A stretch of DNA of 64,000 nucleotides, from assembly GCA_016795485.1 (NCBI GenBank), contig JAEUHM010000025.1:1-64000 (forward strand), given 5' to 3'. Positions 41,141 through 53,839 of the stretch are shown piece by piece; the stretch's first letter is position 1; every line of letters starts with the position of its first letter. The notes beneath the pieces are model-generated. The model was not told the DNA's origin, ran no database searches, and worked only from the letters and a program-made list of their open reading frames with translations. The translations under genes and the position numbers were made by a program. This DNA comes from Verrucomicrobiaceae bacterium. GTDB lineage: Bacteria > Verrucomicrobiota > Verrucomicrobiia > Verrucomicrobiales > Verrucomicrobiaceae.

Positions 41141-41225
41141 GCCCGGGTGGCGGAATTGGTAGACGCGCCAGACTTAGGATCTGGTTTGGAAACAAGTGCA
41201 GGTTCGAGTCCTGTCCCGGGCACCA
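41141..41225 (+). tRNA. tRNA-Leu (anticodon UAG)
   Basis: An 85-base tRNA including the encoded CCA. The acceptor stem is GCCCGGG paired with CCCGGGC. The anticodon stem CCAGA/TCTGG encloses the loop CTTAGGA with anticodon TAG, a long class II variable arm follows, and the T-arm contains GGTTCGAGTCC. The D-arm has the Leu-type GGCGGAATTGGTAGACGC. Its last 39 bases are repeated exactly at 53801-53839, showing that it served as an integration site. The gene remains complete at this end. Confidence 0.98.
41187..41225 (+). repeat. Island attachment site, left copy (within tRNA-Leu 3' end)
   Basis: These 39 bp (variable arm, T-arm, acceptor 3' strand and CCA of tRNA-Leu) are identical to 53801-53839, in the same orientation. 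The flanking bases differ on both sides. Direct repeats of a tRNA 3' end are the typical trace of tyrosine-recombinase integration. Confidence 0.93.
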
Positions 41226-41309: not shown

Positions 41310-42014
41310 CTACAGGTCCATTGCTGCTCCGTTTGTGCGGAGCCAATCTTTGCGTTCGCGGTAGTCAGGGATCAGCTTGTCCACCTCGTTCCAAAACGCC
41401 TCCGTATGGTCAAGGTGGTGCAGGTGGCACAGTTCGTGAACTACGATGTAATCAATGACGCTTGCCGGTGCCATTATGCACTTCCAGTGGAAGGCGAGAT
41501 TGCCATTGGCCGAGCATGAGGCCCAGCGGTTCTTGAGATCGCGGACCGCAACCCGGCGGGACGCCACGCCGACTTTGGGTGCGAAGTAGGCCACACGCTG
41601 GCTAATGCGTTCAAGGGCGCGCTCAGTGAGATAGTGGCGCAACGCTTCCTTTGCGCGCGTCGCATGGCCAGATTCCACAAGGTCGCGTCGCATACAGAAG
41701 CGACCACTCTTTAGCTGCACAGGTTCCTCCTGATTAGCGACCAGTAGAAGGCGATACGAGCGCCCCAGATAGAGAAAGCCTTCGCCGTTGCGATACCCGC
41801 GCAAGACGCGTGTAGCGTTGGCATCCCGCCATTCGGCCAGGGTTTTGTAAATCCATAGCTTTCGTGACTCCACAATGGTCCGAATCCGTCGGTCCGTGAG
41901 TGCTTTTGGTGCACGCACCAAAACCCGCCCGTCGCGCTCAACAACGATGTCTGCTGTCTTGCGACGACTCCGGATCACCGTGTAGCTTAGATCTTTGTCA
42001 CAAGTAACGGTCAT
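41310..42014 (-). CDS. YgjP/DUF45 (SprT-like) zinc metallopeptidase
   Basis: A 234-residue protein with the zinc-protease motif VVHELCHLHHLDHTEAFW (HExxH plus downstream His) near residue 190, preceded by the family block KNRWASCSANGNLAFHW. These are hallmarks of the YgjP-like M48/DUF45 family. Such genes are often found next to type I restriction genes; why is unknown, and control or clean-up of the restriction complex has been suggested only by association. The start overlaps hsdR by 4 bp (ATGA), so translation is coupled. It is the last gene of the island's operon, 84 bp from the tRNA. Confidence 0.88.
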   Translation of the reverse strand: MTVTCDKDLSYTVIRSRRKTADIVVERDGRVLVRAPKALTDRRIRTIVESRKLWIYKTLAEWRDANATRVLRGYRNGEGFLYLGRSYRLLLVANQEEPVQLKSGRFCMRRDLVESGHATRAKEALRHYLTERALERISQRVAYFAPKVGVASRRVAVRDLKNRWASCSANGNLAFHWKCIMAPASVIDYIVVHELCHLHHLDHTEAFWNEVDKLIPDYRERKDWLRTNGAAMDL

Positions 42015-45000
42015 TGGATCAGCTCATTGTGGCGTTTCTCTGCCAGTTTCACGATTTCCACAGCGATGCGCTCTTGCTTGGCCATCATCTGCGGTATTCC
42101 CGAGCACAAAATCTCGGTGCCGATGCTGCCTCGCAGCTTCTTTACTTCGATGGGCTTCTTCCAGAAGTCGATGATGTCGATAGTTGATTGCAGAGTCTCG
42201 ACCACGTTTACCACGAGCGTTTTCAGTGATTCACAGTGCTCGGATGGAACCTCACCATTCTCGAAGCCGATCTGAACCACGAACTCATAAAAGGTAGTCG
42301 CCTCCCGGCTCATCCCGTCGTGGGTGTATTTTCGGCCTTCGACGGCTTTCAGGCGCAGTTTTTCATACTCTTGCACCAGCACCTTCCAGTTGTCCTGATG
42401 CTCTTGAATCAGCCGCTCCAGCTTCTCACTGAGCTTTTTATAGAAGGCGGGATCTTCGTCAAAGTGGACCGTGCAGTGCTTGCGGATGGCGTGCTCCATC
42501 TCGCTGGCCTTCGCCTCAGGATCACCTTGGGAATGCCTCTGCACATTGGCGATGAAGTCGTCGGACAGCAGCTCAATCGGCGGGATCTTGGGATTGATAC
42601 CCAGGTCGATCAGGTGCTCGTTGATGAGCGCCTTCACCTTGGCTCCGGCATCGGCGATGTTCAGTGATTCATCCTTGTAGCGTTCTTTCACCATGCGCAG
42701 CAAGTAACCAAATCGCCGGGCAGGGCCACGATATGGATGCCCTGCGGCATTGGGCAGTATGAGATTCAAGCTCTGGAGAAACCGACTGAGATACACCTCG
42801 AAATCGGCTCTTCGCTTGATGTCCTTCATGGCCGTGACTGCCGCATGGATCACTGCCACATCAGCCTCGGGGCTGGCTAGCGTGCCTTTGACAAAGGCTT
42901 CAATCTCTCTCACTCCGGCGGCGCGGAAGTGTTGCAGCAGGCGGGTGTAGCGCTCTTCAAGAATCGGCAGTTCCGTCAGCAAATCTTTGAGACCGTTTTG
43001 CAGATCGGCGGCATCTTCCTCGGCATAGATGGAGAGCGCGCCAGAAAGGTGGTTGGCCAGACCGATGTAATCGACAACGAAGCCTCGCTGCTTGCCTCGT
43101 GTTACCCGATTCACGCGGGCGATGGCTTGCAACAGATTGTGCTCGCGGAGGCGCTTGTCGATATACATCACCTGCTCGACCGGCGCATCGAAGCCGGTTA
43201 GCAGCATGTCGCAGACGATCAAAAAAGCGATACCCGTCAGTTCCTTGTCTGGGTCCTCCAGATCGAACGGCTTGCAGAAGTTCTCCACGGCATTCCAGCG
43301 CCGCGCCTCTTTGCGCGCCTCGGTGATGGACGCCAGTTCATTGGTCGCATCTGACGACACCACGACCACCGTCTTCAGGAAGGCGATGCGCCGGATGAGA
43401 TCGGCGTCTGGCTGCGGCTTCAGCTTCTCGTTGTCGAGTCTTTCGCAGAGAGCTGCGCGGATCGCTTTTTGATACCGGATAGCGGCCAGTTTCGAGTGAC
43501 ACACCACCTGCGCCTTGAATCCGTCAGGCAGGATGTTGTCGATATAGTGTGCCACGAGATCATCCGCGATTGCCTGGATGCGCTTCTCCGCCTCAAGGAT
43601 GTCACCGCCGGCACCATACTTCTTCTTGATCGCCTCGATCTCCGCAGGTGTGCGATAGCGGAAGAGGTCTTCAAATTTCGTGTCAAAGCCATGTTTGTCC
43701 CTCAGCGCCGTATCCGCCGTTCGGCCCTCGTAGAGGATTTGAAGCGTCGCGCCGTCATGCACGGCGTCCATCAGCTTGTAGGTGTCAATGTATTCGCCGA
43801 AGCGTTTCGTGGTGCGCTTGTTGCCGTGTTGCTCGGTGATCAACGGCGTGCCGGTGAAAGCAATGCGCGTAGCGTTGGGGAAAGCCTCGAAGATGTTGTC
43901 TCCGTAGTCCGAGCCCTGCGTTCGATGCGCCTCATCAATCATGAGGAGAATGCGCTCGGAGCGATTCACCACGCCGAAGGTATCGCCAGAAGGCGGCGCT
44001 CCGTAAGTCACTAGCGCCTCGCGCAGGACCATGGGCACCTCTTCGACGCGCTCCATGAACTTGTGCGTCATCACCATGTTGATGTCAGAGGCACCGCCGC
44101 CCAGGTGCTCGCGGAGCTGGGCCGTGCTTTCAATGACATTCACCTTGCCGCCGATGAGCTTCGCAGTGGCGGCGAGCTGCTCTTCCAGGTCGATGCGATC
44201 ATTGATCAGGAGGATCTTGAAATCAGCCAAATCAGCCGCCGCTCGCATCATTCGAGCTACAAAGACCATCGTCAGCGACTTCCCCGATCCTTGCGTATGC
44301 CAAACCACACCCGAGCGCGCTTCTGGGCTCTTGCCCGCGCGCAAACGCTCGATGATCCGGCACGCTGCCCGGTATTGCTGATAGCGGCAGACCACCTTCA
44401 CTCGCTTGCCATCGTCCGTGTCCATGAACACGGAGCACGTTCGCAGCAGATGTAGCAGAGTCGCTGGTGGCAGCATTCCCTGGATCAGCCGCTCTTGCTC
44501 GCGCTCCACGCCCAGCGGCGGCGTATATTGGCGGTTGGACTCCGGCCAGATGTCCTTCCAGGCATAGAAGTGCTCGTAGCCAGAACTGATGCTGCCATAC
44601 GCAGCCTTCTCCCCGCAGGTGGAGATCAAGAGCAAGTTTGTGTGAAACAGGCGCGGCTCGCCTTCGCGCAGACCGGCGGCTTTCGTCTCCTTGCGGCCGT
44701 CGCGGTAGCGCAGCAGTTGCTCAAAAGCCGCGTGCATTGGATTGGCCGTGGTAGCATCGCCGATCTTCGCCTCCACAAACACCAGCGGGATGCCGTTCAC
44801 AAAGAGCACGATGTCCGGGATGATGAACTCCTTCACACAGCCCGGCGTGTCGATGCGGAACTGGTTGATCGCATGAAAAGTGTTCCGCTCCGGGTGCTCG
44901 AAGTCGATGAGCTTCACCACGGGGTCAGGCTCGCCGGTTTCCTCGTTGCGATCCACCTGCGCTTTGAACAGCAGCTTCTGGATCTCCTCATTCGCTTCGA

Positions 45001-45247
45001 GCAGTGTCCGGTTGGGTTGCCGAAGGATCTGGCTGCGCAGGTCGTCGAGTTGCCGGTCCGTCAGCCAGGGATTGATGGCCTTCACTGATTCACGAAAGAC
45101 CTCAGGTAGCAGCCACTCGCGAAAGGTCTTCCGCAGGCTCTTGGCCGGGTCACACGGGATCATGCCATTCACTTGCTCCACCACCGTCCACCGCAGCGCC
45201 GCAAGCTGGTCGAGGAAGGGCTTTTCGACGTGGAGGTATTCCGACAT
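42011..45247 (-). CDS. hsdR: Type I restriction enzyme, R subunit
   Basis: A 1,078-residue motor/nuclease subunit that cleaves unmodified DNA together with HsdM and HsdS. The N-terminal nuclease domain shows PDIVLFVNGIPLVFVEAK (PD...EAK, Mg-binding). The helicase motor has Walker A in HTQGSGKSLTMVF, the DEAH box IDEAHRTQ and motif III FTGTPL. The C-terminal helical domain has the length expected for binding the methylase. It is separated from hsdM and hsdS by four genes. Its start lies only 7 bp after the AbiEii-like toxin stop, which puts it in the toxin-antitoxin transcription unit. No frameshift or missing motif is seen, so it is probably active. Confidence 0.96.
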   Translation of the reverse strand: MSEYLHVEKPFLDQLAALRWTVVEQVNGMIPCDPAKSLRKTFREWLLPEVFRESVKAINPWLTDRQLDDLRSQILRQPNRTLLEANEEIQKLLFKAQVDRNEETGEPDPVVKLIDFEHPERNTFHAINQFRIDTPGCVKEFIIPDIVLFVNGIPLVFVEAKIGDATTANPMHAAFEQLLRYRDGRKETKAAGLREGEPRLFHTNLLLISTCGEKAAYGSISSGYEHFYAWKDIWPESNRQYTPPLGVEREQERLIQGMLPPATLLHLLRTCSVFMDTDDGKRVKVVCRYQQYRAACRIIERLRAGKSPEARSGVVWHTQGSGKSLTMVFVARMMRAAADLADFKILLINDRIDLEEQLAATAKLIGGKVNVIESTAQLREHLGGGASDINMVMTHKFMERVEEVPMVLREALVTYGAPPSGDTFGVVNRSERILLMIDEAHRTQGSDYGDNIFEAFPNATRIAFTGTPLITEQHGNKRTTKRFGEYIDTYKLMDAVHDGATLQILYEGRTADTALRDKHGFDTKFEDLFRYRTPAEIEAIKKKYGAGGDILEAEKRIQAIADDLVAHYIDNILPDGFKAQVVCHSKLAAIRYQKAIRAALCERLDNEKLKPQPDADLIRRIAFLKTVVVVSSDATNELASITEARKEARRWNAVENFCKPFDLEDPDKELTGIAFLIVCDMLLTGFDAPVEQVMYIDKRLREHNLLQAIARVNRVTRGKQRGFVVDYIGLANHLSGALSIYAEEDAADLQNGLKDLLTELPILEERYTRLLQHFRAAGVREIEAFVKGTLASPEADVAVIHAAVTAMKDIKRRADFEVYLSRFLQSLNLILPNAAGHPYRGPARRFGYLLRMVKERYKDESLNIADAGAKVKALINEHLIDLGINPKIPPIELLSDDFIANVQRHSQGDPEAKASEMEHAIRKHCTVHFDEDPAFYKKLSEKLERLIQEHQDNWKVLVQEYEKLRLKAVEGRKYTHDGMSREATTFYEFVVQIGFENGEVPSEHCESLKTLVVNVVETLQSTIDIIDFWKKPIEVKKLRGSIGTEILCSGIPQMMAKQERIAVEIVKLAEKRHNELIQ

Positions 45248-45254
45248 GAGAACA

Positions 45255-46082
45255 CTAAGCTAGCAGCGCTTCAGCGAGCGTCACGCACTGCTGGCGGATT
45301 TGCTGGGAGGCCTCAGCGAACTCGGCGGACTCATGCTCCTCGCCAAGACGAAAGGCGGCGCATGACATCGGGCCAAGAGCGTCCGCCGAGCCAAAGTAGT
45401 TTTGCAGCGCATGGATCGCATGCGGCACTCCACGATTTCCCGCTTCCTTCTCCGCCTGAAATCCGGCCACCGCAGCCCGATGCCCATCAAGATATTCCAT
45501 TCCCAGATACAGGATGTCATGCATGTCCTTCGGAGCCTTGCGCCCCACCGGACCACCGAAGGCATTCAGCTTGAGCACCAGCATCGGCCCCACCTCGGCC
45601 ACCCGAATTTGCTCGTGCTGCTCGACTCCCACTAGGTTCATGCCTGACACCGCCACCCAGCGGCTGCACTCCCTGGCCCGGTCGATTCCGGGCACGATGC
45701 CCACCGGCAAGCCATCATCTACGATGGCCGTGCCCGTGTCCGCCTTGGCGTCATCCGTCAGCAGGTCCACAAACAACTCCATCTCAGGGAAACGGCGCAC
45801 GAAACGGTTTCCGGCCCAGCGAAATCCGTGAGCGGACAAGGTGTCCTTGATACTCCCATACATCCCGCTAGAGGCCCCCACACTGATACCGAAATCCACG
45901 TCCAGTGTCACAGGACCGGGCATTCCTTCCATGGGAGGCTTTGTCAGATGCCTGACGGCCAGACCTCCCACGAGGACTAAGTCATCGCGGTAGGCCGCCA
46001 GGCAATCCCAAACCGTCAGGAGCGCCCGCTGAGGCAGGTCCATGCTGCCGGGTGGGTATTGGGTGAAGGTTTCGTATTTCAT
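45255..46082 (-). CDS. AbiEii-like nucleotidyltransferase toxin
   Basis: A 275-residue protein of the nucleotidyltransferase AbiEii/AbiGii kind. The NTase signature is readable: LVGGLAVRHL (GG helix start), then TLDVDFGI (DxD metal ligands), and further on LVLKLNAFGG...RKAPKDMHDI, matching the Lys/KDxxD block of AbiEii. Such toxins modify tRNA or other targets and can block phage growth. The start at 46082 overlaps the antitoxin stop (ATGA); an ATG at 46100 is possible. The gene order of antitoxin first, toxin second, with 4-bp overlap, is typical of AbiE. hsdR follows after 7 bp. Overall identity to known toxins is uncertain, hence moderate confidence. Confidence 0.72.
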   Translation of the reverse strand: MKYETFTQYPPGSMDLPQRALLTVWDCLAAYRDDLVLVGGLAVRHLTKPPMEGMPGPVTLDVDFGISVGASSGMYGSIKDTLSAHGFRWAGNRFVRRFPEMELFVDLLTDDAKADTGTAIVDDGLPVGIVPGIDRARECSRWVAVSGMNLVGVEQHEQIRVAEVGPMLVLKLNAFGGPVGRKAPKDMHDILYLGMEYLDGHRAAVAGFQAEKEAGNRGVPHAIHALQNYFGSADALGPMSCAAFRLGEEHESAEFAEASQQIRQQCVTLAEALLA

Positions 46083-47116
46083 CGGGCAAATCCTTCCCAT
46101 TGACGGAGAGCCTCAGCCTGGTCCGGGCCGCGCTGGCCCACTTGGAGCAGGTCGAGGTAAATCTGCACATCTGCAACCAATGGAAAGCCACGCACTTGCT
46201 GTGTTTCTCGAAAGACGCCGTCATCCGCAGGATGAATAAGCCACAGGTTGCCGCCACTGCTCACTTTCCGGCCCAGTGGTTGATTCAGCCGCTGCGGTTC
46301 GGTGACGTAGGCAGAGACAACCGGTGGCGTGGTGTAGGGAAAGCGCAGATGCGCGGCGAACCACTGAGTGAACGCTGTTTTGCCGGTGCCCACACACTCT
46401 ACGATGTCCCGCGCAATCTCCTCCGCATTGGAACTCAGCACGGAATACTGCTGCACAGTTACCCTACCAGCCCAGCGGTCTGACGACTTCCAGGCATCCA
46501 GCAAGCGGTCAAAGGCACTCACACGATAACGGGCAGCGGTTTGGCGTGTGGCCGCTGCTAATTGCTCCAGAACGCCATCCTCTTTCAGCACCTTCAGAAT
46601 GCGGGAAACAAGGCCTCTCGACACCCCTGTTCGCGTAGTGAGTTCCTCCTGGGTCCATTCACGGTCCCGATGGGACAGCAGCGCCCTGACCAGCCGGGAG
46701 GTTTTCAGGGAGAACGCATCTGGCGCGGATTCAGGATTGCGGAAGTGGGTCGCCGATGGTCGGCGATCAATGACCAGCCAAGGCGTTTGAATGAAGAGCC
46801 GTCCGTTGAGATCCGCGTGACACAGTCCTGCCGTTCTCAAATCTGCCGCCAAGGCCTCGGGCAAATGTGGGCTGAGTAGCAGGCGCTTCTGTTGGAGCGG
46901 GTCGTTGCCGGTCGAGAGCCATTTGCGGGAAGGATGCAGCAGTGGCAAGATGGGCAGCGCCGTTTTCTCTCCTTTGGCTTCCAGCCGCACCTCGGTAGCC
47001 CCGTCGCGCACGGGAGAGAATCGCAACGAGTAGGCTTCGAGGCTCTCATTCGGAGCCTCTTGCACATAGGTCGCCAGCAGCTTGGCTGGGTCAATGATGG
47101 AAATTGTTTTACTCAA
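46079..47116 (-). CDS. AbiEi-like antitoxin/autoregulator
   Basis: A 345-residue protein with a central winged-helix domain (about residues 150-200: WTQEELTTRTGVSRGLVSRILKVLKEDG) and a larger C-terminal domain with a YxxTEPQRL-like segment, as in AbiEi-family type IV antitoxins. Known AbiEi proteins both neutralise the toxin and repress their own promoter by binding inverted repeats. Here the octamer AGTAAAAC/GTTTTACT occurs three times across the start codon region (47106-47144). The N-terminal 145 residues are not assigned. It is longer than canonical AbiEi (about 200-280 residues), so it may be a distinct subfamily. Confidence 0.7.
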   Translation of the reverse strand: MSKTISIIDPAKLLATYVQEAPNESLEAYSLRFSPVRDGATEVRLEAKGEKTALPILPLLHPSRKWLSTGNDPLQQKRLLLSPHLPEALAADLRTAGLCHADLNGRLFIQTPWLVIDRRPSATHFRNPESAPDAFSLKTSRLVRALLSHRDREWTQEELTTRTGVSRGLVSRILKVLKEDGVLEQLAAATRQTAARYRVSAFDRLLDAWKSSDRWAGRVTVQQYSVLSSNAEEIARDIVECVGTGKTAFTQWFAAHLRFPYTTPPVVSAYVTEPQRLNQPLGRKVSSGGNLWLIHPADDGVFRETQQVRGFPLVADVQIYLDLLQVGQRGPDQAEALRQWEGFAR

Positions 47117-47144
47117 AATGTTTGTTTTACTGGTCTAGTAAAAC
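47106..47144. promoter_or_regulatory. Operator-like repeat cluster upstream of the antitoxin gene
   Basis: GTTTTACT (47124-47131) and AGTAAAAC (47137-47144) form a perfect 8-bp inverted repeat with a 5-base spacer. A third copy of the octamer (47106-47113) coincides with codons 2-4 of the antitoxin gene, 18 bp from the middle copy. An AbiEi-type repressor would be expected to bind such a site for autoregulation. The binding is inferred from family behaviour. Confidence 0.6.
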
Positions 47145-47346
47145 ACCTTTACCGAGTGAAATCAACAGCGATTCGGGCTCCAGAACACGAGGATTCCACA
47201 ACACAAAAACGAGGGAATCAGAATAGGCCATGCTGTGGGCAAAATCAGATGACGGAGGAAACTTCGCTTCTCTGAGTTCGCTCCTTTTCATGGATGGACT
47301 TGGTCTCATCAATCGCAGGCTGGCCCGAAATAATGGCGAGAAGCCA

Positions 47347-49185
47347 TTACCCATCCATCGGCGTGATGGACCAGATCTCCTTCGCCAGTGCAGTCAGGAG
47401 TTCCTGCCGCTTGTCGATGCTCGCGGCGGTCCACTCCTCGAAAGCGGCGAGCTTGGCGTTGATGCGGCTGATGGAGGTGTTCTGGCCGCCCTCAGCGAGG
47501 CGCACGAGGCTGCGGGTCAGATAGGAGCTGCATTCCAAATACTTGGCCTTCTTGAGGGCAAAGAAATCGTTTCCGGCGATGATGTTCAGGGGCTTCTCCA
47601 GCAGGGTCAGATTGCCCAGTCGGAGTTTTTCCAGCTCGTAGTCGCGGTCCTTGTTCTTCTCTTTGAAGTCCGCCCTCAGCATCGCCTCGGGGTTGTTCGG
47701 CAGGATGTGCTCGATCTCGAAGCCTTTGTATTCGTCCAGGGAGCCGGGCTCTTTGAGCCCCTTGAAGGCCATGTCCACATGCTGGGCCAGCTTTCGAAGC
47801 AGGTAGCGGGTGCGATACTGCTGCATCGAGTAGAAGTGATAGCGTTTCAGCGCGTCGGCCAGTTCGACCTCCTTGGCGTTCAGTCCCGCTTGCAGCCGGT
47901 TCGTGAGGAAATCGTTGAACTTCGTCCGCTGGGCTGCCGCATCGGTGGTGGCGGCGATGGCACGCAGATCATCGGCCCAGATCGAGAAGAGGCGCTCGAC
48001 CTCCTTCGACTGGGTCTTGGTGAAGATGTTGTAGAACAGGTAGCTCTCCAACTGCACCACGAGGTGATTGAAGAGCGCCGGGGGAAAGCTGCTGGCGGCG
48101 AGGAGCAGCACGTTATGCAGGCTGAAGGCACCGCCGGTGAGCTGGGCCAGGTTAGCGATTGCCACGCTGGCTTTGCCGTCATTGCCGAGTCCCTTGCCAA
48201 AGTTCACGTAGTGCTCCACGGCCCGGATGATCTTACGGACAAAGGTGAAGGGATCTGCCTTGTAATTGCACAGGGCTTCGTTCTCCTTCTTCACGAACCA
48301 GTCGTAAATCTCGTCCTCGCGCAGCACGCCGTCCTTTTGGGCGCTGTCGATCTTGTAGCTGGCCATGAGGAAGTAGCGCAGGAAGCGCAGCGGCTTCTCA
48401 CCGGCCAGGGCCAGAGGTTTTGTCACCTTCTCCCACTCGGCCTTCAGTTTGGTGAAGTCATCCTTCTTCACCTGGGTGAAGAGCAGGTTCTTCAGCAGGT
48501 CCATGGGGTTCAGGCCCACACCACGCTCGTTGATGGTCTCAAAGATCTTGAGCGCGCTGCTTACATCGGTGGAGATCTGGATGAAGACCACGCTGTTCGC
48601 CAGGTAGCCCCAGTATTTCTTCAGCGCCTTCAGGTCCTGGTAGTTGTCTTTCAGGTAGTTCCAAATCGTGCCGTAGGCGTTCACCAGGTTCTCCAGCGAG
48701 CCAAAGCTCTTGATGCCCGCCGCCTGAATACCGGCCCGCGTGGCCTCGGGATCGGTGGAGAGCGCCACGATGCGCTGCATCACCTCACCAGCGTTCTCGT
48801 AGCGCGGTTCCAGCTTCAGGCTGTCCTGGGTGTCACCTTCGGCAGTGGTGTAGCTGGTGGAGATGAGGGTGCCGATGCTCTGCGCCTGCGGTTCCTTTTG
48901 AAACCACTGCTTTAGGGCGCAGAGCACCAGGAAGAGCGTCGTGAGACGCTGCTGGCCGTCGATGACCTCAAAGTGCTGCTTCTGCGCCTCCACCGGAGAC
49001 ACCAGCACCGTGCCGATGAAATACTCCCGCGTGCGGTTGCCGTCGATCTGCTCGTTGATGTCATTCAGGAGCTGGAGCACCTCCTTCTCTGTCCAGACGT
49101 ATTCACGCTGGAAATCCGGGATGATGTAGAAGCACTCCCGGAAGGCCTGCTCAATGGTGTATTTGTGGTTCTCGATTCTGGCCAT
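47347..49185 (-). CDS. GmrSD-like DUF262/DUF1524 restriction-type protein
   Basis: A 612-residue protein with an N-terminal DUF262 (ParB-like NTPase) domain, IIPDFQREYVW at about 21-31 and FEVIDGQQRLTTL at about 72-84, and FETINERGVGLNPMDLLKN near 210. The C-terminal DUF1524 HNH-type nuclease has EIEHILPNNP and LGNLTLLEKPLN. This is the domain plan of GmrSD/type IV enzymes that cut modified DNA, and of related phage-defence proteins. Both halves look intact. It follows the unknown 176-residue gene by 42 bp and is followed by a 230-bp non-coding gap before the antitoxin gene. Together with the type I system it would cover both unmodified and modified incoming DNA (inference). Confidence 0.88.
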   Translation of the reverse strand: MARIENHKYTIEQAFRECFYIIPDFQREYVWTEKEVLQLLNDINEQIDGNRTREYFIGTVLVSPVEAQKQHFEVIDGQQRLTTLFLVLCALKQWFQKEPQAQSIGTLISTSYTTAEGDTQDSLKLEPRYENAGEVMQRIVALSTDPEATRAGIQAAGIKSFGSLENLVNAYGTIWNYLKDNYQDLKALKKYWGYLANSVVFIQISTDVSSALKIFETINERGVGLNPMDLLKNLLFTQVKKDDFTKLKAEWEKVTKPLALAGEKPLRFLRYFLMASYKIDSAQKDGVLREDEIYDWFVKKENEALCNYKADPFTFVRKIIRAVEHYVNFGKGLGNDGKASVAIANLAQLTGGAFSLHNVLLLAASSFPPALFNHLVVQLESYLFYNIFTKTQSKEVERLFSIWADDLRAIAATTDAAAQRTKFNDFLTNRLQAGLNAKEVELADALKRYHFYSMQQYRTRYLLRKLAQHVDMAFKGLKEPGSLDEYKGFEIEHILPNNPEAMLRADFKEKNKDRDYELEKLRLGNLTLLEKPLNIIAGNDFFALKKAKYLECSSYLTRSLVRLAEGGQNTSISRINAKLAAFEEWTAASIDKRQELLTALAKEIWSITPMDG

Positions 49186-49227: not shown

Positions 49228-49758
49228 TCAGTCACACTCAAACGTAGGTAGTTGAATTGCTTCAGTGACCTGCGCTCGGAGCTTGCGCAAATCCTTGCAC
49301 CTGATGCGTGACACGATTTTGCGCTTCTTGTATAGGTATCCAGTTCCCAGATGCAGCTTCAGACCGTTCTCCAGGTTGTGGGCGTGAGGACTGGATGGGA
49401 ACGGGTCTGCATCATTCTGGTGGATTCGCCATATTTCGCCGCCTTGAGGGAGGGTCTGTTCTTCGAGAAGCCTGAGCCAGTCTTCTGGCAGGATGGATTC
49501 CGTCAGCGTGATGGTTTGCAGCGGTTCAACCAGAGGCGGCTCAAAGGGGTAGTCCTTCAGTTGCTCGATGATCTCATCCACGGTGGGAATCGGCGTGGAA
49601 AGCATCATGAGTTGGTTCTCAGCGCCCCAGAGTTCGCGCACGGCTTCGGTGAACTCTCCGCTCTCAATCACACGACCGTGAAGGGTGGCAAGCCGTTGCC
49701 GTGCTTCAGCGGAGAAGGCGTTCCAGGCGTTCAGCCACTGTGACATATCATCGTCCAT
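49228..49758 (-). CDS. Uncharacterised protein between hsdS and the GmrSD-like gene
   Basis: A 176-residue soluble protein from the ATG at 49758. The C-terminal half holds a striking motif, IWRIHQNDADPFPSSPHAHN, followed by LKLHLGTGYLYKKRKI, which looks like a conserved domain core with possible metal or nucleic-acid-binding His/Asp residues. The N-terminal half is helical and acidic. I cannot name a family. The tight spacing (25 bp after hsdS, 42 bp before the GmrSD-like gene) ties it to the defence operon, where it may be a partner or control protein. Confidence 0.7.
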   Translation of the reverse strand: MDDDMSQWLNAWNAFSAEARQRLATLHGRVIESGEFTEAVRELWGAENQLMMLSTPIPTVDEIIEQLKDYPFEPPLVEPLQTITLTESILPEDWLRLLEEQTLPQGGEIWRIHQNDADPFPSSPHAHNLENGLKLHLGTGYLYKKRKIVSRIRCKDLRKLRAQVTEAIQLPTFECD

Positions 49759-49783: not shown

Positions 49784-51079
49784 TCACACGGGCACCCGGC
49801 CCGTCAGCAGGTCCTGCATCAGGCCTTGTTTTTGGTGGCGGAGTTTGGCGAGGTGGGTGGTTTCGTCAGCGAGAGTTTGAGTGGCTTGCGCGACGCACTC
49901 TACGATTCTGTCGATTTCATTCTGAATTTTGGGCCAGCCAATCAGCATGCGATCCACAACGGTTATGTAGATGTGCTTGATTGTGGAACCTCCTGCATCG
50001 GCGATCATTTTATCCTGCCAACGAGGAGAGCTGAGAAGCGCCGCCAGAAAGGTTGAATGGCGAGTCTCTTGCGGCCGCAAGACTGCGACCGATTGGTTTA
50101 TGCAGACATCTTCTCGGTCAACGACTGCGATTCTGCCAAGCGTTCCGTCTTTGGTTAGCAAGACATCACCGACAATCGGACGACTTTTCTTCGTGAGCAA
50201 TTGATCAAAGGCACTGCGCGTGGTTCGTCTGCAAGTTTCATATTGGATCCGGCCTCCATTTATGTCGGCCGCTGTCACCATATAAGGACCGTCTTCGGCT
50301 TCCGGCATGGGGTTGGTGAAGCCGTAGGAAATGAATGAAAGTTTGGACCGCAGTTCGCACGCGTCCCACTCCTTCGGGAGCCAGCCGAGAGGGGTTTCGT
50401 GGTAGAGGTGGGGGGCTTCTTGGCGGCTGGGGCGGAGGTGACCGTCGGGGGTGACGCCGCGCGTGAACAGGTCGTGCATCAGCCCCGCCTTCATCTGCTC
50501 CAGCTTCCCCACCAGCGCCTCCGTCTGCTCCATCGCCTCGTCCACCGTCGTCAGGATTTCGGCGATCCGGCGCTGTTGAGGCGGAGGTGGAATGCGTGTC
50601 CGAATAGCAAGATAGGAACCTTGCGAGATATTCTTCATGCTACCGCTGGTGCCAGTCGCGGCGCGTGAAACACCTGCGCGAAACTCTGGTGATTGGACCA
50701 CAAAGCTTAGCCACTTCGTCGAGGTCTCAAGGCCACCACGGAGGACCGTCTGCCATAGTCTGTCAGGCACGAACAGGTTCGGAAAATCTCCTCCCACATA
50801 AGCAGTCTCACCGACGAGATCGAACGTGTTCATTCGGCTAATGAGAACCGAATCGGCTCGCGGGTTCAGTGCCGCGCGGACTATTTCATTGGCTACGATT
50901 ACCTTGTTTTGGCTTGGATCGAACTTACCGCCATTGACACAACTGGTTTTGAGAATGCCGAACTCATCTGGCGCACAGGGTTTATCCTCGGAGTTGACGC
51001 TGACACCAGATTCAAGTCTCTCAACCAAGGTCGAAAGCGGTTCATCCTTCCAGCCTTGTGGCAAAGGGAGGTTACTCAT
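49784..51079 (-). CDS. hsdS: Type I restriction enzyme, specificity subunit
   Basis: A 431-residue HsdS with two target-recognition domains (about residues 8-165 and 225-385), each followed by a helical spacer: [31 protein letters not shown] (cited as the QRRIAEIL region) after the first and [16 protein letters not shown] after the second. The ends of the spacers are similar ([20 protein letters not shown]), the usual internal repeat. The recognition sequence would be bipartite and cannot be read from the protein. The start overlaps hsdM by 8 bp. The gene is intact. Confidence 0.94.
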
Positions 51080-53588
51080 ACCCCAGCTCCTCCAAGAACG
51101 TCTTCAGCTTCGCCGCTGCGGTGTCGCGTTTGGCTTCGATGGCCTTGGCGGTGACGGCGTATTTGGCGTGCAGGTTTTCCAGGGCGGCGAGGCAGGCGCG
51201 CTGGTCGGCGCGGAGGTAGCTTTCATACGTTTCGATGAGGACGCGGTGCAGGCGGTCGAGGATGACGCGCTTGGCCTCGTCGGTGTCGATCTTGGCACGG
51301 GCGGCGGTGACGAGTTCCTCCTGCTTCTTCTCGGTGGCGCGGAGGGCAGCCTTCAGATCGCGGACCTCATCCTCCAGGGCCTTGTGCTTGAGCAGGCGCT
51401 GCTCGATCTCGGCGGCCTGGGCGGTGTAGCTGCTCCAGTCGCGTTTGCGGCCTTCCTTTTTCGCCAGCTTGGCCTGGGCGTTGAGTTCCTTCAGCTCGGC
51501 CTTGAGGCGCTTCACCTCGTCGCCGGGGAGCACGCCGGTGTCGTCGCTGTCCTCGTAGTCCTCCTCATCCGCAGCGGCGAAGAGGGCGGCCAGCTCGGCC
51601 AGGCGCAGGCGGTTCTTTTCCATCTCGGCCAGCACCTCGGGGAACTGGCTTTGCAGAATGTCGTCGTCCGGGATGAGTTCCGGTCCCCAGCCGGAGAAGG
51701 CGATGGATTTGAACTCCGGCTTGAAGAACTCGAAGTAACGGGCCAACGCGCCGCGAATCTGGTGTGGCGTGAGCAGGGAAAAAGTGGTTGCGGCTTCAGC
51801 CGCATCAGAAGCAGCACTTCGGCTAAAGCCGAAGCCACTTTCTACAATGCTGCTGAAGAGCAGGCGGCGGAGTTCATACACGTTGCCCTTGTTTCCATCC
51901 ACGGGCGCGAGGGCCTCGACATGTGGGAGGTTGTGGCCCCACCAGGTCTCCAGCGTGCTGCGGAAGGCGGCGTGTGCGGTGGCGATGCCGGGATCGCTTT
52001 TCACCAGATCGGCGAGGGCGCGTTTGTCCGTGACGGCGGGGGTGAAGTCGGCGTAGCGGGCATCTGACGGGCGTGGAGCGAAGACGCGCTCCCGCAGTCC
52101 GGCGTAGTTCGCCCAGTAGCGACCGAGGCCCTCGACCTCCGCGACGGGCACACCGCCATGCAGATGGGCGCGGACATCGTGCGGCTCCGGTGGCGGGGCA
52201 TTGTCCACATAGCGGCGGATGTTGCAGTTCCAGTCCTCGGCCTCGATCTCGCTGACGGGCACGAGGCGGGCGTAACCCTCCACGTCCTGTTGCTGGCGGT
52301 AGACGTGGACGATTTTGCCGATGTCCTCGGGGCGGAGGAAGTTCTGCGCCTTGCCCTCGCGGTATTCGCGGTCGGCATTGATGAAGAAGACGTGCTTCCG
52401 GTCGGCCGCGCCTTTTTTGTTCACCACGAGGATGCAGGCGGGGATGCCGGTGCCGTAGAACAGCCCGGCGGGCAGACCGATGACGGCCTCCAGCCAGCCA
52501 CGCTCGATGAAGTGCTTCCGCGCCTCCTTTTCCTCGCCACCACGAAACAGCACGCCATGCGGCATGACGGTCGCCATTTTTCCGTCTGCCTTCAGCACGG
52601 CGATCATGTGCTGCACGAACATGAGGTCGGCCTTTTTCCCTTTCTCCGGCAGCCAGACGGCGAAGCGGCCGGGATACTCGATGTCTTTCTTGATGTAGTT
52701 CTGCGAGAAGGGCGGATTCGCGGCCACACGGTCGAAGCGCTTCAGCTCGCCGCCCTCGGCCTTGTGCTGCGGATGGCGCAGGGTGTCCTCCTGCCGGATG
52801 TCGGCGTGCGGGATGCCATGCAGGAGCATGTTCATTTTGCAGATGGACCAAGTGGTGCCGATGCTCTCCTGCCCGGCGAGGGCGAGGTCACGTGGATCAC
52901 CACCGCACTCGCGCACGTAGTCGCGGGTCTGGATCAACATGCCGCCAGAGCCGCAGGTGGGGTCATACATGCTCATGCCCGCCTCTGGGGCCAGAATCTC
53001 CGTGATGACGCGCACGACCTCCGCCGGGGTGTAGAACTCGCCCGCCTTCTTGCCTGCGGAGTCGGCGAAGAACTTGATCAGGTATTCATAAGCCGCGCCG
53101 AGGAGGTCGGGGAACTCGAAGTTCTCATCCCGCAGCGGGATCTTCTCGAAGTTCTGGACGAAGTTCGAGAGCGTGTCGTCATCCAGGGTGCGCTGGCCGA
53201 TCTTGCGGTTGAAGTTGATGTGCTTCAGCACGTCCTCCAGCGTGTCCACATTGGCGTCCTCGATGGCTTCGAGGGCTTTGTTCAGGGCGGTGCCGACATT
53301 GTTCTTGAGGTGGCGAACATGGTTCCAGCGTGCCTCTGGCGGGACGAAGAAGGTGTATTTGTCGGGATTGGCGAGCTGAGCCTGGATGATCTCCGGCTTC
53401 ATGCCGCGTGCCTGGAGGTCCTTCGCCAGCTTTTCCTGCTCCTGGTCGAAGAGGTCGCTCAGGCGCTTCAGGAACAACATGCCGAAGATGTATTCCTTAT
53501 ACTCCGAGGCATCCATGTTCCCCCGCAGGTCATCGCAGGCGCGGAAGAGGAGGCTGGAAAGCTGGGAGAGGGTAAGTTTCCGGGACAT
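51072..53588 (-). CDS. hsdM: Type I restriction enzyme, methylase subunit
   Basis: An 838-residue N6-adenine methyltransferase subunit. The helical N-terminal domain begins at the ATG at 53588 ([20 protein letters not shown]). The SAM motif is [12 protein letters not shown] and the catalytic motif is [10 protein letters not shown]. The long C-terminal part includes [19 protein letters not shown], an acidic linker ([12 protein letters not shown]) and coiled coils. It is longer than classical HsdM but matches a common extended subtype. The frame continues above 53588 to the island border, but that stretch reads the complement of the tRNA fragment and is not coding. Around 51781-51841 the gene contains an in-frame palindromic insertion (about 20 residues, near [19 protein letters not shown]) just before the conserved [11 protein letters not shown] block. 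Confidence 0.95.
51781..51841. repeat. REP-like multi-hairpin palindrome inside hsdM
   Basis: Three nested stems are visible. The outer arms are AAAGTGG (51781-51787) and CCACTTT (51835-51841). Hairpin A, TGCGGCT-TC-AGCCGCA, spans 51789-51804. Hairpin B, CTTCGGCT-AA-AGCCGAAG, spans 51817-51834. The layout is a three-way junction of the kind made by REP/RAYT-type mobile palindromes. It is translated in frame within hsdM. Confidence 0.75.
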
Positions 53589-53800
53589 CAGAGGCGGGGG
53601 GATCAGAGGAGATGGGCAAATCAAAGCGGCTCCGACCTCGAATGGCAAGGGGATCGACAAGTGGGGGCCACAATCATGAGAACCGGTTGTCTGGAGCCAG
53701 TTCCTCAACTGAACCGAAGCAGAATGGCTCGTGCTCGCTACCCCTCGTCTTGGCCTCAAAATGAATGAATCACACCGTGCCACTAGCCCAGTGTTGGGTA

Positions 53801-53839
53801 TGGAAACAAGTGCAGGTTCGAGTCCTGTCCCGGGCACCA
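53801..53839 (+). repeat. Island attachment site, right copy (tRNA-Leu 3' fragment)
   Basis: An exact 39-bp copy of the tRNA-Leu 3' end (41187-41225) in direct orientation. The preceding bases do not complete a tRNA, so it is a fragment left by integration. The 211 bp between the hsdM start and this site carry no gene and presumably include the hsdM promoter. Confidence 0.93.

What the first reader, a model, noticed from the sequence alone, without database searches (positions are those of the whole stretch)
42011..47144. hsdR placed under a toxin-antitoxin autoregulated unit
The AbiEi-like gene, AbiEii-like gene, hsdR and the metallopeptidase run with 4-bp overlaps or a 7-bp gap, while hsdM and hsdS are in a separate upstream block behind a 230-bp non-coding gap. 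The only promoter-sized gap before hsdR carries operator-like octamers at the antitoxin start. The antitoxin could therefore time restriction after methylation, a built-in delay on entry to a new host. This layout is an inference and I do not know of it as described.
Basis: inference. Interest (0 to 1): 0.72.

Follow-up and report, generated by a model that had tools for sequence, protein, structure and literature searches.

The report
Restriction gene inside an antitoxin-controlled operon
In a small mobile DNA island, the gene for the DNA-cutting part of an anti-virus enzyme sits third in the operon of a self-repressing toxin-antitoxin pair, and this arrangement with its DNA switch is kept in many bacteria, so the antitoxin probably sets how much cutter is made rather than delaying it.

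Summary
On the minus strand AbiEi-like (46079-47116), NTase (45255-46082), hsdR and ygjP run with a 4-bp overlap, a 7-bp gap and a 4-bp overlap. They follow a 230-bp gap that separates them from hsdM-hsdS-p176-GmrSD. The 'octamers' are an operator-like array of four TTTTACTG half-sites (47107-47161, spacing 18/11/18), unique in the genome and found at 23 of 24 homologous AbiEi genes, so it belongs to the AbiE pair. Predicted folds match MenT/AbiEii toxins and the AbiEi C-domain. Among HsdR orthologues (at least 64% identical), hsdM-hsdS-[slot]-hsdR-ygjP is constant and the slot is swapped. This AbiE lineage fills it in 13 of about 66 loci; 17 of 18 known members lie, or lay, before hsdR. One (L150) lost the toxin but keeps AbiEi and operator; two lost hsdR and keep the pair. 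The island is flanked by a 43-bp tRNA-Leu duplication. Closest precedent: the RptR/DarTG2 island (PMC12255303), where a repressor controls the whole operon from hsdM. Placing hsdR under an AbiE autorepressor is a new variant of that kind. The proposed delay is not supported: a self-repressor absent on entry gives early, not late, HsdR.

The parts
41183..41225 (+). 3' end of tRNA-Leu (41141-41225); attachment-site-like copy 1 of a 43-bp direct repeat
41310..42014 (-). YgjP-like zinc metallopeptidase, 4-bp overlap with hsdR
   Evidence: PF01863, E 2e-59; follows hsdR in nearly all orthologous loci
42011..45247 (-). hsdR, type I restriction subunit R, 1078 aa, intact
   Evidence: (TIGR00348 423 bits)
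45255..46082 (-). AbiEii/MenT-type nucleotidyltransferase (toxin of the pair), 275 aa; invariant GG, DxD, K, R..KD..D residues
46079..47116 (-). AbiEi-type antitoxin/regulator, 345 aa: extra N-terminal domain, winged HTH about 133-213, AbiEi-like C-terminal domain 233-345
47107..47161 (-). operator array: half-sites 47161-47154 (TTTCACTC), 47143-47136 (TTTTACTA), 47132-47125 (CAGTAAAA), 47114-47107 (GAGTAAAA); spacing 18, 11, 18 bp; the last lies in codons 2-4 of AbiEi
47117..47346 (-). 230-bp gap that must hold any promoter of the AbiE-hsdR unit; no sigma-70-like match or intrinsic terminator called in it
47347..49185 (-). GmrSD/DUF262 protein (slot cargo, also upstream of AbiEi in L120)
49228..49758 (-). 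176-aa protein of unknown family
   Evidence: no match
49784..51079 (-). hsdS, specificity subunit
51072..53588 (-). hsdM, methyltransferase subunit (start MSRKL; the longer ORF to 53840 runs into the repeat)
53797..53839 (+). attachment-site-like copy 2 of the tRNA-Leu 3' end (42/43 identical)

Best explanation
[quoted passage not shown] The cassette splits the operon: hsdM-hsdS-p176-GmrSD upstream, and AbiEi-NTase-hsdR-ygjP downstream from a promoter in the 230-bp gap. AbiEi most likely binds the four half-sites and represses that promoter. HsdR, the toxin and AbiEi are then made together at a low, self-adjusting level while methylase is made separately. When AbiEi falls (phage takeover, host shut-off), HsdR and toxin rise together. 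Shown: gene order, coupling, operator conservation, predicted folds, slot swapping, island ends. Inferred: promoter position, repression, effect on HsdR level, derepression in infection.
For: Operator array in 23 of 24 AbiEi loci, linked or unlinked to hsdR, with an 18/10-11/18 geometry. Arms with a 2-3-bp centre match the published S. agalactiae AbiEi operator (two 23-bp repeats, N3) and the two-pair Rv2827c promoter (PMC3985639, PMC7319586). Both arms change together (TTTTGCTG...CAGCAAAA in L150, TTTCACTA...TAGTGAAA in L087). Hsd-linked AbiEi plus two exceptions form one clade, support 98. NTase-hsdR gap of 7 bp or near it in relatives. AbiE loci have about 90-320 bp or more before AbiEi, whereas most DarTG-type loci have about 25 bp between hsdS and darT. 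L150: NTase reduced to ATGAAACACGGCACCTAA, AbiEi and operator intact, hsdR 18 bp on. AbiEi dN/dS 0.13-0.18. AbiE directly before hsdR also in three divergent pairs L026, L041, L068 with other HsdR types.
Against: No expression or binding data. No sigma-70-like promoter was called in the gap, and no terminator after GmrSD, so read-through from hsdM is open. hsdR is tightly coupled to whatever cargo fills the slot, so coupling to AbiE may be incidental. L056 and L164 kept the pair after hsdR broke. The toxin-less form is a single contig of a metagenome-assembled genome.
Confidence: 0.6

Rival explanations
1. Passive cargo slot: the hsdS-hsdR interval is a recombination hot spot for defence and toxin-antitoxin cassettes. 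AbiE is one guest that regulates itself; hsdR is mainly fed by read-through from hsdM, and AbiEi control of HsdR is incidental.
For: The slot holds DarTG, Schlafen-like, canonical AbiEii, Xre-IrrE/PIN, TIR, YhcG, helicases. AbiE needs at least 6-7 changes on the HsdR tree. L086 and L088 share hsdR at 95% DNA identity but carry different AbiE pairs, with the break in the last ~60 bp of the NTase gene. The same hot spot was proposed for RRDM (PMC12255303).
Against: This AbiEi clade lives almost only before hsdR (17 of 18). It brings its own gap and operator. L150 kept the regulator and lost the toxin.
Confidence: 0.25
2. Addiction: AbiE stabilises the mobile restriction island, and hsdR placement only makes loss costly.
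For: The island has tRNA-Leu repeats at both ends and no recognised integrase among its genes. The pair outlives hsdR in L056 and L164.
Against: In L150 the toxin went and the rest stayed. AbiE is absent from most orthologous systems.
Confidence: 0.08
3. One reading: AbiEi delays HsdR until the chromosome is methylated.
For: hsdR and hsdM can be under separate promoters; EcoKI has separate promoters and its hsdR lags hsdMS by about 1 h after subculture (PMC12707154).
Against: A self-repressor is absent on entry, so expression starts high; the model gives t50 0.08 vs 1.0 generation. C proteins that time the nuclease of type II systems activate it at low level (PMC12255303, PMC12707154).
Confidence: 0.05

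Closest known systems
RRDM island of enteropathogenic E. coli: RptR-hsdM-hsdS-DarTG2-hsdR-M48 (PMC12255303)
   Same: Toxin-antitoxin pair between hsdS and hsdR, an M48-type peptidase after hsdR, a self-repressing regulator with repeated operators; many HsdR orthologues found here carry DarTG in that slot
   Different: There a separate 79-aa repressor at the hsdM end controls the whole operon through TAGCTA repeats. Here the repressor candidate is the antitoxin, in mid-operon, ahead of hsdR only; no ORF of that size on the minus strand ahead of hsdM and no TAGCTA there
AbiE type IV toxin-antitoxin systems (S. agalactiae AbiEi/AbiEii; Rv2827c/MenT4)
   Same: Antitoxin gene then toxin gene, wHTH plus AbiEi C-domain, MenT-fold nucleotidyltransferase, paired inverted repeats with a short centre at the promoter
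   Different: Extra N-terminal domain of about 130 aa before the wHTH; other half-site sequence; two more genes (hsdR, ygjP) in the unit
C proteins of type II restriction-modification systems
   Same: Regulator gene directly before the restriction gene, acting at its own operator
   Different: C proteins are small HTH activator-repressors that hold back the nuclease at first; AbiEi is a 345-aa wHTH protein expected to repress
EcoKI hsdR/hsdMS separate promoters (PMC12707154)
   Same: Separate transcription of hsdR and hsdMS
   Different: No toxin-antitoxin pair between them

Membership tests
Type IV toxin-antitoxin (AbiE) | Bicistronic, antitoxin gene first, directly followed by toxin gene | tested here: met
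   46079-46082 ATGA overlap; same in relatives
Type IV toxin-antitoxin (AbiE) | Antitoxin with wHTH and AbiEi-type C-terminal domain | tested here: met
   wHTH 133-213; residues 233-345 match 6y8q, Z 7.5, rmsd 2.6 over 104 aa; AbiEi_2 18.6 bits, below cut-off 21, in the window, 22.7 in L091
Type IV toxin-antitoxin (AbiE) | DUF1814/MenT nucleotidyltransferase toxin with GG, DxD and K/R..KD..D motifs | tested here: met
   Invariant columns; MenT1 Z 14.5, MenT3 11.7-11.8, MenT4 11.5; no PF08843 match
Type IV toxin-antitoxin (AbiE) | Paired inverted repeats at the antitoxin promoter | tested here: met
   geometry as in PMC3985639 and PMC7319586; promoter itself not mapped
Type IV toxin-antitoxin (AbiE) | Toxicity, antitoxicity, autorepression | not testable with these tools
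   needs experiment
Type I restriction-modification | Intact hsdR, hsdM and hsdS | tested here: met
RRDM island (RptR type) | rptR ahead of hsdM with TAGCTA repeats | tested here: not met
RRDM island (RptR type) | DarTG2 between hsdS and hsdR | tested here: not met
   Slot holds p176, GmrSD, AbiE
C-protein-controlled restriction-modification | Small HTH controller protein ahead of the nuclease gene | tested here: not met
   345-aa wHTH/AbiEi fold

The most novel reading that the evidence does not exclude
This AbiEi lineage has become the dedicated transcriptional controller of hsdR in a type I system, a counterpart of C proteins with opposite sign, kept even when the toxin is lost (L150), and able to raise restriction and toxin together when it is depleted during infection.
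Probability: 0.35. Interest if true: 0.65.

Novelty: new variant of a known kind. Interest (0 to 1): 0.5.

Why it matters
How type I systems keep HsdR in check at the transcript level is little known; RptR is a recent example at the hsdM end. If AbiEi controls hsdR alone, an antitoxin sets the ratio of cutter to methylase and ties classical restriction to abortive infection through one switch. The natural variants found here (toxin lost, hsdR lost, cassette swapped on the same hsdR) make that testable.

Tried and rejected
Viral contigs: no relative of AbiEi. Plasmids: distant relatives only, at most 31% identity. Sigma-70 and terminator scans of 45100-47500: 0 promoters, 1 terminator-like site inside the NTase gene, both at or below chance; uninformative. 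Foldseek alone for AbiEi found mainly the wHTH. An activator (C-protein-like) run of the toy model settled in its low state and was not used. Minus-strand ORFs in the gaps of L102, L088, L107 as proof of separate transcription: no family match, dropped. AbiEi dN/dS in L150 cannot separate before from after toxin loss, dS near saturation.

Full report
Observation. The layout is as described. On the minus strand, AbiEi-like 46079-47116, nucleotidyltransferase 45255-46082, hsdR 42011-45247 and a YgjP metallopeptidase 41310-42014 follow a 230-bp gap (47117-47346). Upstream are hsdM, hsdS, a 176-aa unknown and a GmrSD/DUF262 gene, so hsdS is not the neighbour of the gap. HsdR, HsdM, HsdS, YgjP and GmrSD are clear family members.

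The pair. AbiEi_2 scores just under its cut-off in the window protein and above it in the orthologue L091. Models were made from 37 and 35 relatives. AbiEi has mean pLDDT 92: a wHTH at about 133-213, and a C-domain that matches S. agalactiae AbiEi, 6y8q, Z 7.5, rmsd 2.6 over 104 residues; a Z in this range alone is modest, and the match gains weight from the partner and the operator. The NTase model (pLDDT 95) matches MenT1 (Z 14.5), MenT3 and MenT4 and keeps the GG, DxD, K and R..KD..D residues. An extra N-terminal part of about 130 aa sets this AbiEi apart from the 195-aa chain of 6y8q.

The operator. The octamers belong to four half-sites, consensus TTTTACTG, spaced 18, 11 and 18 bp, two in each direction (47107-47161). 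The palindrome occurs once in the window (0.01 expected) and once in the genome. With a fixed geometry, 23 of 24 AbiEi loci beat all 200 shuffles; the exception, L087, has a TTTCACTA palindrome that lay partly outside the stretch scored. Several loci hold two arrays, like Rv2827c. Arms vary together: L150 TTTTGCTGggcCAGCAAAA, L087 TTTCACTAgcTAGTGAAA. The arrays also stand before AbiEi genes not linked to hsdR, so they belong to the toxin-antitoxin module. The size and short centre match published AbiEi operators (PMC3985639, PMC7319586).

The slot. A genome-wide scan with HsdR gave 66 orthologues at 64% identity or more in many phyla. Where the contig allows, hsdM-hsdS-[slot]-hsdR-ygjP is the rule. 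The slot holds this AbiE pair in 13 loci including the window, DarT/macro pairs in about 14, Schlafen/AlbA_2 proteins in about 9, and canonical AbiEii, Xre-IrrE/PIN, TIR, YhcG, helicase or protease genes elsewhere (families of clusters were assigned from representatives). AbiE needs at least 6-7 changes on the HsdR tree. L086 and L088 share 95% identical DNA from the last ~60 bp of the NTase gene through ygjP but have different AbiE pairs. The slot is therefore a recombination site, as proposed for RRDM (PMC12255303).

Specialisation. Yet the AbiEi proteins before this hsdR form one clade (support 98). With later finds L168, L169 (hsdR present) and L164, I count 18 members: 15 before hsdR (in L106 with a short ORF between), two (L056, L164) where hsdR is broken within its first codons by a deletion or an inserted element, and one (L055) without any. 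L106, L164, L168 and L169 were placed by identity and neighbourhood, not on the tree. Gaps before AbiEi are about 90 to more than 300 bp, while most DarT genes follow hsdS by about 25 bp. L150 has lost all but five codons of the NTase, while AbiEi, operator and hsdR stay. Three more distant AbiE pairs stand 8-33 bp before hsdR genes of other types.

Mobility. A 43-bp repeat of the tRNA-Leu 3' end (42/43) flanks the locus at 41183-41225 and 53797-53839. None of its eight genes is a recognised integrase; the nearest match in the genome is about 190 kb away on the contig. L057 has a similar 63-bp repeat at a tRNA-Arg. Entry into new hosts is therefore likely to have happened, and the timing question is fair.

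Mechanism. AbiEi autorepression is established for two family members (PMC3985639, PMC7319586). Applied here it gives low, self-adjusted HsdR with its toxin partner. On entry the repressor is absent, so a delay is not expected: in a minimal model the self-repressed unit reaches half level in 0.08 generation against 1.0. A delay would need activation. Type I systems of families IA and IB already have post-translational protection (ClpXP on HsdR; PMC12707154). Control of HsdR, the promoter position and derepression in infection remain inferred.

Novelty. RptR/RRDM (PMC12255303) already shows a toxin-antitoxin pair within a type I operon under a self-repressor. What is new is the AbiE kind, the split ahead of hsdR, the dedicated clade and the natural variants. 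I found no paper describing it in the library searched.

Noticed in passing
window 41183-41225 and 53797-53839: 43-bp direct repeat of the tRNA-Leu 3' end brackets the eight-gene locus: a 12.6-kb tRNA island without a recognised integrase.
   Followed up: yes
L057/L085, L053, L054, L025, L145, L055: tRNA-Arg or tRNA-Gln genes lie close beyond ygjP (or beyond the NTase in L055); L057 has a 63-bp tRNA-Arg duplication about 25 kb away.
   Followed up: partly
L150:2340-3420: Toxin gene reduced to five codons while AbiEi and its compensated operator remain in front of hsdR.
   Followed up: partly
L164:7400-8000 and L056:11180-11560: AbiE pair intact, hsdR broken just after its start (inserted element in L164, deletion into ygjP in L056).
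   Followed up: partly
L093:4503-4766, L138:5688-5920: A second copy of an hsdR segment lies upstream of the slot cargo, as if cargo entry had duplicated part of hsdR.
   Followed up: no
about 60 HsdR-orthologue loci: ygjP directly follows hsdR almost without exception, whatever fills the slot; its role in restriction is unknown.
   Followed up: no
window 49228-49758: 176-aa protein between hsdS and GmrSD without any family match.
   Followed up: no
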